Source of the DNA: Pyropia haitanensis
Lineage: Eukaryota; Rhodophyta; Bangiophyceae; Bangiales; Bangiaceae
Direction of reading: 5' to 3'
Assembly (NCBI GenBank): GCA_008729055.1
Contig: SDUX01000003.1
Span: forward strand, 1,302,001 to 1,366,000
Length of the DNA stretch: 64,000 bases
Position 1 is the stretch's first letter; each line of letters starts with the position of its first letter. This document shows positions 59,420 to 61,924 of this stretch, piece after piece. The notes beneath the pieces were generated by a model. That model was given only the letters and a program-made list of their open reading frames with translations. It had not been told where the DNA came from and searched no databases. The translations under genes and the position numbers were made by a program.

Positions 59420-61924
59420 TCAAAAGTAGTGCGCCTGCAGCTTCTTGGGCGCCACCCCCCCCCCCACCCCCCCGCCCAGCAGCCCGCCGCCCAATACGCC
59501 CAGGTCCGCCTCAATGACGCCCGCGCCGAGGCACGCGCCGTCTACATAAAACGCCGCGTACTGGCCGGGTGCGAGCCCCCCGTCCCGCGCGTCAAGAACC
59601 ACCACCCCCCCCGTCCCGCCGCCCGACAGCACCACCACGCCGCCGCCTATCCGCGGGCCGTGCCGAGTCTTGACGCCCGCCCGCCACGGCACCCCATCGG
59701 GGGCGGGGGCGCCGGCGCCCGCGGCGCCGCCGGCGGCGGGGGCGGCCACCCACGAGGCCCCCCCAAACGAAAACGTCACCCCCACCCCAGCCACGTCCGC
59801 GTACGACCGACTGACGTACACCACGTTCTCCTCCACCCCCTTCCACACCACGTGCCAGGGCCCGCCCGACAGGCCGAGCCCCCGCCGCTGGCCCGGCGTG
59901 TAAAACCAGTAGCCTCGGTGGGTGCCGAGGCGGGTGCCCGTCTCGTACTCGACAAGCGGCCCCGGGCGGGTGCCGAGGTGGTGGCCGAGGAAGGCGTCAA
60001 ACTTGAGCTTGCCGAGGAAGCAGATGCCCTGCGAGTCGGGCCGGGAGCTGTTGGGGAGGCCGTACGCGGCGGCCGCTGCGCGGACGGCGGGCTTGGGCAT
60101 GCCCCCAATCGGGAACGCCGCCTTGGCCAGCTGCGCCTGCGTCAGGTGGGAGAGGAAGTAGGTCTGGTCCTTGGCCGCGTCCGCCGACTGGAGCAGCCGC
60201 ACGGGGCCGCCGTCCCAGTCGGCGCCGGCGTCGCCCGCGCCGTCGGCACCCCCCCCCCCCGCGCCCAACCCGTCCAGGCCGTCGACGAGGTCCCCCCCAC
60301 GGTCCGCCCCCCCCCCCCCGTCCGCGCATAGTGCCCCGTCGCGACGCGGGCGTGCCCCCCCCCCCCCCGACCGCGTCGTAAAACGCGCCAAACTTGATGC
60401 GCCCGTTGCACAGCACGTCCGGGTTGGGCGTCCGCCCCGCCCGCGCCTCGGCGACCGTCGACGCGACGACGCGGTCCCAGTACTCGGCCTGGAGCGGGAG
60501 GGTGCGGAGGCGGAGGCCCACCTGCGCCGCCACCGCGCCCGCCGCGGCAATATCCTCTTCCCACGGGCAGGACGCGCCGAGGTGAACGAGCTCGTCCGCC
60601 AGCCAAATCTTGAGGTAGTAGGGCGTCACCGAGTGGCCCGCGTCGAGGAGGCGGCGGAGCGCAACGGATGAGTCGACGCCACCAGACAGGAGGACCGCCA
60701 CGTCCGTGCCTGCGCAGGACGTATACAGGGTGCCGTCTGTGACGGGGAGCGGGGAAGGGGGAGCGGCGACGGCGGCGTCAGCGGGCGCACCCCGTGCAGC
60801 CAAGGAGTCGGCAGCGGCGGTCGACAGCGGCGCACCCCCCTCTGCCGCACCTGAAAGCGCGGCGACGACCGCCGCAGAGGCCCCCCCCCTGCCCACCTCG
60901 CCCCCATTCTTCTCACCGGCCCTGTTGGACCCCACCACTGCTGACGCGACCAGCTCTGTCAGCGTCTCTACCACCGCGCCAAGGCCGTTGAGGCGGGAGC
61001 GCAGGCCCGCGGCGGCCACGTCCAGCCCCGCCGCGGCCGCCACGGCCGGGGCGGTCAGCCGCGGCCCGCCATCCCCCGACGGCCCGCCCAGCAGCACGCC
61101 CACCCCCTCCCCGTCAATGGCGGCCAGCACCAGCGCGACGAGGCCACGGGACAGGCGCGCGTCCGCTTCCCCCGCCGCCTGGACCACCAGCGCGCCCACC
61201 CCGGTGCCGCCGCCGTCGGCGCCGCCGCCGGCGGCCGGCACCAGCCGCACCGCCACGCGCACGACTGCGGTGCAGCCGGGGACGGGGGTGAGGGGCGACC
61301 AGCCGTCGGCGGCGGCGGCCGCGCCGGGGGGGGGGGGGGGAGCCGGTCGCCCAGCGCGACGAGCCGTGTCAGACGGGTGGCCTGGTCGGGCGCCGCGGCC
61401 AGGTGGGCGGCCGCGGCGGCGGCGGCGGGGGATAGGCATAGGGCCGGAGCGGGGGTGCCACCCCCGTCGCCACCACCGCCGCCACCACTGCCGTCGTTGC
61501 CGTCGCGGCCATAGCTGCCGCCAGCAAGGGAATCGGCAGAGGCGGTGGCCGCCACCCGCCGGGTTGCCCCCGGCGACGGTAGCCGCACCCGTCGCCGTCC
61601 CATCCCACCCGCGGGGTGTGGCGCGGCGGCGGGCACCGGCGGCGCCGACGGCAGCCGCCACCGGCCGGGCGCCGCACCGGCCGCGACGGCCGGCAGTGGC
61701 CGCCTGCAGCAAGGCAGCGGCGGGGGTGGGAGGAAGGCAGGGGTGGTGGTGGCGGCAGTAGAGATGGCGGTGGCGGTGGTGGCGGCAGCGGCAGCGGCAG
61801 CGGCAGTGGTGGCGGCAGTGGTGACGGTGGCTGGGGGGGAGGAGGCGCGCGCGACCGCTGGCGGGCGACGACGCCGCAACGACGATGCGACCGCGCTACC
61901 GGGGGGGAGCGGCGGCACCGCCAT
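59420..61924 (-). CDS. SufE-MnmA fusion: sulfur acceptor domain plus tRNA 2-thiouridylase, frame-broken at C/G runs
   Basis: ATG at 61924 (MAVPPLPPGSAVASSLRRRR) opens an Ala/Thr/Arg-rich, acid-poor leader that looks like an organelle transit peptide. SufE domain: AAAPDQATRLTRLVALGDRL-PPP; then, after a frame change at the G run 61326-61340, VPGCTAVVRVAVRL with the catalytic Cys codon at 61272-61274; GEADARLSRGLVALVLAAID; and AGLRSRLNGLGAVVETLTEL. After an Ala/Ser linker comes a complete MnmA/TRMU: PP-loop VAVLLSGGVDSSVALRRLLD, EYWDRVV, catalytic-Cys motif RTPNPDVLCNGRIKFGAFYD, ATGHYAR, KDQTYFLSHLTQAQLAKAAF, and the second Cys in RPDSQGICFLGKLKFDAFLG, ending KKLQAHYF. Frames change at C 60355-60368 and C 60307-60319. 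MnmA makes 2-thiouridine at tRNA position 34; SufE passes persulfide sulfur from SufS. Plastid or mitochondrial location is inferred. MnmA identity is very firm and SufE identity good. Confidence 0.9.

What the first reader, a model, noticed from the sequence alone, without database searches (positions are those of the whole stretch)
59420..61924. SufE sulfur-carrier domain fused to the tRNA thiolase MnmA
The sequence shows a SufE-like domain (RLTRLVALGDRLPP, VPGCTAV with the active Cys, ADARLSRGLVALVLAAID, LRSRLNGLG) followed in the same gene by a full MnmA with its PP-loop and both catalytic Cys. Known biology: SufS/SufE mobilise Cys sulfur and MnmA uses a persulfide to make s2U34. Plants carry other SufE fusions (SufE-BolA, SufE-NadA). 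A direct fusion to MnmA would put donor and acceptor in one chain, a dedicated relay for organellar tRNA thiolation. The leader suggests plastid or mitochondrial import. I do not know of this fusion as a characterised enzyme. It is the strongest candidate here for something undescribed.
Basis: partly seen in the sequence, partly recalled or inferred. Interest (0 to 1): 0.88.

Follow-up and report, generated by a model that had tools for sequence, protein, structure and literature searches.

The report
SufE–MnmA fusion of red plastids
A red alga makes one protein that joins a sulfur-carrying domain to the enzyme that puts sulfur on transfer RNA; similar joined proteins turned up in other red algae, diatoms and brown algae, and versions are already in print from the plastid of malaria-type parasites, so it is real, old and useful, but not wholly new.

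Summary
On the minus strand, 61924–59420, one gene encodes a leader, a SufE domain (Cys218, Arg311), a variable linker and a complete MnmA. No methionine lies between residues 108 and 610, so MnmA has no ATG start of its own. Three long C/G runs break the frame; one added base at each gives 835 residues. Pfam's SufE score is then borderline (26.0 bits whole, 32.0 for the piece; cut-off 27), but a profile of relatives built without the nearest orthologue gives 69.9.

In 206 proteins (window plus 205 relatives) the SufE Cys is kept in 199 of 199 that reach it, the Arg in 206 of 206. In the MnmA tree the 34 fusions form one clade (100/99); 10 of 10 named green-lineage MnmAs lack SufE. The alga also has SUFE1 (SufE–BolA), SufS and a second MnmA; no TusA or TusE was found.

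Best reading: a dedicated relay, SufS to SufE domain to MnmA to plastid tRNA. This is in print for apicomplexans (PMC9420914, PMC10219651). New here: the red-algal member, the wide distribution, one clade, and full conservation of the two catalytic residues. No function was measured.

The parts
59420..61924 (-). SufE-MnmA fusion gene, 835 aa after adding one base at each of three homopolymer runs
61445..61924 (-). leader, residues 1-160: no Asp or Glu in the first 130 residues, 15 Lys+Arg in the first 128; likely organelle transit peptide (inference)
   Evidence: orthologue's leader predicted with low confidence
60936..61429 (-). SufE domain, residues 166-330
   Evidence: Foldseek match of the orthologue model to SufE 3g0m and 1mzg
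61272..61274 (-). Cys218 in VPGC, equivalent of E. coli SufE Cys51 (persulfide carrier)
   Evidence: Cys in 199 of 199 proteins that reach the position; role of Cys51 from PMC11408855 passage
60993..60995 (-). Arg311, taken as the equivalent of E. coli SufE Arg119 (by profile alignment and motif)
   Evidence: Arg in 206 of 206; PMC11408855 passage
60711..60935 (-). linker, residues 331-405, variable (41% identity to the orthologue)
59423..60710 (-). MnmA (tRNA 2-thiouridine synthase), residues 406-835
60669..60686 (-). PP-loop SGGVDS, residues 414-419
60408..60410 (-). Cys506 (NPDVLC), first catalytic-type MnmA cysteine
   Evidence: Cys in 91 of 91 aligned fusions
60020..60022 (-). Cys636 (SQGIC), second catalytic-type MnmA cysteine
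   Evidence: Cys in 91 of 91 aligned fusions
61326..61340 (-). C15 run, frame break 1
   Evidence: the orthologue P0001 is in frame here
60355..60368 (-). G14 run, frame break 2
   Evidence: the P0001 gene model also departs from the conserved frame between this run and the next
60307..60319 (-). G13 run, frame break 3

Best explanation
One nuclear-encoded plastid enzyme. The class II cysteine desulfurase SufS takes sulfur from cysteine and passes a persulfide to Cys218 of the built-in SufE domain. The flexible linker lets that domain swing and hand the sulfur to the MnmA half (Cys636, with Cys506 as partner), which adenylates U34 of plastid tRNAs for Lys, Glu and Gln and replaces O2 by sulfur. 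SufE here does the job that TusA-TusBCD-TusE does in E. coli, separately from the SUFE1 (SufE-BolA) carrier for Fe-S clusters. The fusion arose once, after red and green plastid lineages parted, and passed with red plastids into brown algae, diatoms, haptophytes and, by published domain calls, apicomplexans. Shown here by sequence: architecture, conservation, one clade of fusions, co-existing SUFE1, SufS and second MnmA, no TusA/TusE found. Inferred: plastid location, sulfur path, tRNA targets, the direction of transfer between lineages, inheritance by apicomplexans.
For: Domain calls after correction. Cys218 in 199 of 199 proteins reaching it and Arg311 in 206 of 206; PMC11408855 names the equivalents as strictly conserved in SufE-like folds and the Cys as required (passage). 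MnmA Cys 91 of 91. MnmA tree: 34 fusions plus one truncated model in one clade 100/99, the green lineage in a separate clade 100/100 without SufE. SufE-domain tree: 32 fusions against 26 SUFE1-type proteins, one branch 100/100. Own genome: SufS at 514.9 bits against cut-off 475.1, SUFE1 with BolA, second MnmA, no TusA or DsrC/TusE at E<=0.001 while controls were found. Folds: Gracilaria model matches MnmA (2hma, TM 0.89 by target length) and SufE (3g0m, TM 0.87); Pyropia vietnamensis model the same folds with a low-confidence linker. In Plasmodium, loss of SufS but not of free SufE destroys the apicoplast, as expected if MnmA has its own SufE.
Against: No biochemistry on any fusion. Pfam's SufE score for the whole window protein (26.0) and for the orthologue (23.5) is under the cut-off of 27. 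In Plasmodium, B. subtilis MnmA alone could replace the native enzyme, though only one of four attempts worked without its own desulfurase, so a SufE half is not strictly needed. The authors prefer direct SufS-to-MnmA transfer. In the MnmA tree the diatom, brown-algal and haptophyte fusions sit beside the red algae (80/84 against 94/87), not inside them, so transfer from a red alga is not itself shown. No coordinates were available, so the Cys-Cys geometry was not measured. The Tus search is by family profile in six frames and could miss intron-split or very divergent genes; the same kind of search for SufE missed the window's own divergent SufE. As assembled the gene is broken in three places.
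Confidence: 0.72

Rival explanations
1. The SufE domain acts mainly as a docking and activating module for SufS, and SufS passes sulfur straight to the MnmA cysteines, as YrvO does to MnmA in B. subtilis.
For: The Plasmodium paper favours direct transfer, and B. subtilis MnmA alone could complement. SufE enhances SufS activity (PMC10219651 passages).
Against: A mere dock would not need the catalytic Cys in 199 of 199 and Arg in 206 of 206 proteins.
Confidence: 0.17
2. The SufE half mainly serves another acceptor (SufBC2D or others), and is fused to MnmA only for import or dosage.
For: SufE can feed SufB in bacteria (PMC8003979 passage). The SufE-domain tree does not itself show which acceptor is served.
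Against: A separate SUFE1-BolA gene is present in this genome, and SUFE1-type proteins in Pyropia vietnamensis, Rhodosorus, Galdieria partita and Purpureofilum, which also have the fusion. The two SufE types split on one branch at 100/100, and the fusion to MnmA is kept across the clade.
Confidence: 0.06
3. Artefact or pseudogene: two adjacent genes merged, or a decayed copy, as the three frame breaks might suggest.
For: Three frame breaks as assembled; long open frames are common at this GC.
Against: Orthologue with the same order and conserved domains; 206 of 238 proteins examined carry the SufE domain, several from records labelled transcripts; all three breaks sit in runs of 13-15 identical bases and all need the same correction; no Met between residues 108 and 610; codon-position GC typical of coding sequence in SufE and MnmA.
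Confidence: 0.03

Closest known systems
Toxoplasma gondii apicoplast MnmA TGGT1_309110 (PMC9420914, one passage seen)
   Same: [quoted passage not shown] apicoplast tRNA thiouridylase
   Different: much longer protein; MnmA domain called as three stretches; the passage lists the SufE domain and gives it no role; no algal relatives in that passage
Plasmodium falciparum apicoplast MnmA PF3D7_1019800 (PMC10219651, passages and part 2 of the Discussion seen)
   Same: N-terminal SufE-like domain found by structural modelling; SufS to SufE-like domain to MnmA proposed
   Different: their homology searches detected no intermediate sulfur transferase; the authors favour direct transfer; the word algae does not occur in the main text
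Plant SUFE3 (SufE-NadA) and SUFE1 (SufE-BolA) (PMC8003979, PMC6006212, PMC3721309, passages seen)
   Same: SufE domain fused to a plastid protein, for SUFE3 to the enzyme it serves
   Different: other partners; MnmA does not occur in the main texts of the three papers; SUFE1 co-exists with the fusion in this alga
E. coli MnmA with the TusA-TusBCD-TusE relay
   Same: MnmA half and chemistry
   Different: separate relay proteins fed by IscS (PMC10219651); TusA and TusE not found in this genome
B. subtilis YrvO-MnmA pair
   Same: MnmA fed without Tus proteins (PMC10219651)
   Different: dedicated desulfurase, two separate genes 31 bp apart, no SufE relay

Membership tests
MnmA (tRNA 2-thiouridine(34) synthase) | HUP/PP-loop, PRC-barrel-like and C-terminal beta-barrel domains | tested here: met
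   corrected protein: PF03054 198.5 bits, PF20259 71.3, PF20258 31.1, all over cut-off; also in the uncorrected frames
MnmA (tRNA 2-thiouridine(34) synthase) | SGGxDS PP-loop and two catalytic cysteines | tested here: met
   SGGVDS 414-419, Cys506, Cys636; Cys 91 of 91 in relatives
MnmA (tRNA 2-thiouridine(34) synthase) | NCBIfam equivalog score for the whole protein | tested here: met
   TIGR00420 279.7 bits against 236.95; the second model NF001138 just misses, 280.4 against 284
MnmA (tRNA 2-thiouridine(34) synthase) | makes s2U34 | not testable with these tools
   no biochemistry
SufE (PF02657) | profile score above Pfam's cut-off of 27 bits | tested here: inconclusive
   26.0 bits, E 8.7e-6, in the whole corrected protein; 32.0 in the 182-residue piece; 15.7 uncorrected; orthologue P0001 23.5; Gracilaria P0012 78.5
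SufE (PF02657) | persulfide Cys and conserved Arg | tested here: met
   Cys218 and Arg311
SufE (PF02657) | SufE fold | tested here: met
   on relatives only: Gracilaria model to 3g0m 1.4e-9, Pyropia vietnamensis model to 3g0m 1.5e-4
SufE (PF02657) | accepts sulfur from SufS | not testable with these tools
   SufS gene present; transfer untested
SufE-MnmA fusion known from apicomplexans | SufE or SufE-like domain N-terminal to MnmA in one chain | tested here: met
   literature side
SufE-MnmA fusion known from apicomplexans | descent from the same fusion event | not tested
   no apicomplexan sequence was obtained; inference from red-plastid ancestry (recalled)
SUFE1 / SUFE3 plant SufE fusions | BolA or NadA partner domain | tested here: not met
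   no BolA or NadA match at E<=1 in the corrected protein; the partner is MnmA

The most novel reading that the evidence does not exclude
A SufE persulfide carrier was built into the plastid tRNA thiolase once, at the base of the red algae, and uncoupled plastid tRNA thiolation from free SufE and from the Fe-S scaffold in red-derived plastids. This would explain why malaria parasites lose the apicoplast without SufS but not without SufE: their MnmA carries its own SufE, inherited from a red alga.
Probability: 0.5. Interest if true: 0.68.

Novelty: new member of a known kind. Interest (0 to 1): 0.5.

Why it matters
The Plasmodium authors left open what lets SufS feed MnmA when free SufE is dispensable (PMC10219651). 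A SufE domain with intact catalytic residues in red algae and diatoms gives that puzzle a likely ancestor, points to two exact residues to mutate, and offers compact proteins (such as the 592-residue Gracilaria one) for biochemistry. It also gives a domain-fusion marker that separated red-type from green-lineage plastid MnmA among the named proteins examined.

Tried and rejected
Separate SufE and MnmA genes: rejected (no Met between residues 108 and 610, orthologue and transcript-labelled relatives). Pseudogene: rejected as unlikely (conserved domains against variable leader and linker), though the breaks cannot be proved to be assembly errors without reads. The origin of the plastid-type MnmA was not settled: no cyanobacterial MnmA was compared. 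The origin of the SufE domain was not settled: the SufE-domain tree has no outgroup, carries long-branch and composition warnings (the window row among them), and does not place the window's SufE beside the other red algae. Cys-Cys distance in the model: no coordinates available. Glaucophytes, cryptophytes, dinoflagellates and chromerids: none seen by name in the lists, but only the best 120 rows of each protein search are shown, so nothing follows. Whether Plasmodium and Toxoplasma keep the Cys and Arg: not checked, no sequence in hand.

Papers: search listings; passages; one section part. One search found no paper. One search was too broad to be useful: 3,048 papers, and MnmA occurred in none of the ten listed.

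Full report
What is there. The gene lies on the minus strand from the ATG at 61924 to the stop at 59420. In the sequence as given it runs through three reading frames. The frame changes fall in runs of 15 C (61340-61326), 14 G (60368-60355) and 13 G (60319-60307), and the same correction, one more base, heals all three, giving 835 residues and one stop. Undercounted bases in long G/C runs are the simplest cause, but reads would be needed to prove it. At the first break the orthologue P0001 of Pyropia vietnamensis reads straight from leader into SufE; between the second and third runs the P0001 gene model also leaves the conserved frame, so this stretch troubles both assemblies.

Is SufE real? 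Before correction Pfam gives SufE 15.7 bits (E 0.013), below its cut-off of 27. After correction the 182-residue piece scores 32.0 bits, E 1.2e-7, but the whole 835-residue protein only 26.0 bits, E 8.7e-6, just under the cut-off; P0001 scores 23.5 and Gracilaria P0012 78.5. So here and in P. vietnamensis the domain is divergent, and the case rests on relatives. A profile made from relatives' SufE domains without P0001 scores the window protein at 69.9 bits (aligned over residues 167-327), and none of 200 shuffles of residues 151-405 was reported at E<=10. AlphaFold models, made on relatives because the corrected letters are not in the DNA, fold as SufE plus MnmA: Gracilaria P0012, mean pLDDT 86.6, matches 2hma (TM 0.89, by target length) and SufE 3g0m (0.87); P0001, mean pLDDT 72.8 with low-confidence leader (1-151) and linker (361-405), matches 2hma (0.84) and 3g0m (0.78).

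Is MnmA whole? The corrected protein passes TIGR00420 (279.7 against 236.95 bits) and just misses a second equivalog model (280.4 against 284); all three MnmA Pfam domains pass.

Is it one gene? The linker frame is open, but at this GC that is weak. Stronger: no Met between residues 108 and 610, while MnmA begins near 406; identity to P0001 is 50% in the leader, 77% in SufE, 41% in the linker and 86% in MnmA; third-position GC is 0.93 in SufE after the first break and 0.90-0.92 in MnmA, but 0.76 in the linker and 0.80 in the leader part; and relatives whose records are labelled as transcripts (for example P0093, P0154) carry both domains in one frame. That the labels GEZJ (P0013, Agarophyton) and MMETSP (P0023) denote transcriptome sets is recalled, not from a call.

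How widespread? Three protein searches were run; each lists only its best 120 rows. Of the 237 proteins listed by these two, plus the window protein, 206 of 238 match the SufE profile. Among rows whose label names the organism, 10 of 10 red algae (P0001, P0012, P0013, P0019, P0021, P0031, P0035, P0056, P0069, P0085) have SufE and 10 of 10 green-lineage ones (P0076, P0082, P0091, P0092, P0095, P0099, P0102, P0104, P0119, P0120) lack it; P0082, P0085 and P0119 carry only project codes, decoded from recall. Eleven named diatoms and brown algae (P0052, P0064, P0125, P0164, P0172, P0180, P0199, P0201, P0222, P0225, P0233) and the haptophyte Prymnesium P0073 have it; Ectocarpus siliculosus P0065 lacks it, but its model begins three residues before the PP-loop motif and its close relative P0064 has it, so a truncated model is likely. 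One named bacterium, Spirochaeta P0117, lacks it. Searches ranked by likeness to a red-type protein favour red-type relatives, so these counts are not a census.

Conservation. Aligned to the profile, the SufE catalytic Cys is present in 199 of 206 proteins; the other 7 begin after it; Arg311 is present in 206 of 206, while the position of 309 varies. PMC11408855 calls the E. coli equivalents, Cys51 and Arg119, strictly conserved across SufE-like folds, the Cys being required for transpersulfurase activity (passage). In a 91-row alignment that I chose from the listed fusions, three MnmA cysteines are kept in 91 of 91.

One origin. A tree of 72 MnmA parts (55 of the 237 proteins, the window, and 16 of the 80 bacterial loci, chosen by me) puts all 34 fusions and P0065 in one clade (100/99) and the green lineage in another (100/100). 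The root is at the midpoint for drawing, and long branches meet among the bacteria. Inside the fusion clade the red algae (94/87) and the diatom, brown-algal and haptophyte fusions (80/84) are side by side with modest support; the latter are not nested in the red algae, so the direction of transfer is inferred from plastid history, not shown. A tree of 32 fusion SufE domains against 26 from SUFE1-type proteins (24 of them with a BolA domain; chosen from 120 listed) is split by one branch (100/100); without an outgroup it shows separateness, not direction, and it carries long-branch and composition warnings.

The cellular setting. By profile search this genome has one further SufE, SUFE1 with SufE 122.7 bits and BolA 87.3 bits; that search did not report the window's own divergent SufE, so others like it could be missed. 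It has SufS (TIGR01979, 514.9 bits, cut-off 475.1) and an IscS/Nfs1-type desulfurase, and a second MnmA in pieces at C2:765854-766924 whose PP-loop is followed by another sequence than the FYLKIW-CPWEED stretch of the plastid type. TusA and DsrC/TusE gave no match at E<=0.001, while controls were found in 11 of 14 and 1 of 14 genomes. SUFE1-type proteins occur beside the fusion in Pyropia vietnamensis, Rhodosorus, Galdieria partita and Purpureofilum. The leader has no acidic residue in its first 130 positions, as organelle transit peptides often do (recalled).

Mechanism. The anatomy fits SufS to SufE-Cys218 to MnmA to U34. The location in the plastid, the sulfur path and the tRNA targets are inferred from the families. 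The main rival is that SufS passes sulfur straight to MnmA and the SufE half only docks; unbroken conservation of the Cys argues against it, while complementation of Plasmodium by B. subtilis MnmA shows that an MnmA can be served without a SufE half, at least sometimes (one success in four attempts).

What is known. PMC9420914 lists a SufE domain in Toxoplasma MnmA. PMC10219651 reports a SufE-like structural domain in Plasmodium MnmA, used orthologues from four other apicomplexans in the alignment for that figure, proposes this relay, prefers direct transfer, and calls for further study. Nine searches of the open-access library listed no paper that I recognised as being on the algal fusion; most subscription papers are not in that library. 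Public records already carry the domain pair and names such as tRNA-specific 2-thiouridylase. So the red-algal gene is a new member of a known kind, and the added value is distribution, one clade and strict conservation.

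Noticed in passing
window 60307-60368 (minus strand): The conserved ATGHYAR motif of MnmA sits between two long G runs and is out of frame with its neighbours here; the Pyropia vietnamensis gene model P0001 also departs from it. Shared sequencing trouble is likely, but slippage in life is not excluded.
   Followed up: partly
window 62182-62264 (+): tRNA-Leu(CAG) just upstream of the fusion gene, on the opposite strand.
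   Followed up: no
window 57400-59088 (+): Neighbouring open frame with a DUF2505 domain, 32.5 bits against cut-off 26.9.
   Followed up: no
L004-L006 (G000:C2:765854-766924, -): A second MnmA gene of another type, in pieces between long G/C runs, perhaps the mitochondrial enzyme.
   Followed up: partly
L015-L020: The bacterial MnmAs most like the plastid type come from Dependentiae/Babeliales, Ignavibacteria and Patescibacteria-type genomes; no record title among the 80 kept names a cyanobacterium. The plastid MnmA may not be cyanobacterial; untested.
   Followed up: no
P0109, P0111, P0121-P0124 (metagenome proteins): Six proteins of 1142-1186 residues carry a SET domain besides SufE and MnmA; in P0109 it lies ahead of them, and P0109 falls among the diatoms in the tree. 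Real fusion or merged gene models.
   Followed up: no
L010 (G000:C34:17975-19018): A NifS-like desulfurase on a 24.5 kb contig, perhaps from an associated bacterium.
   Followed up: no
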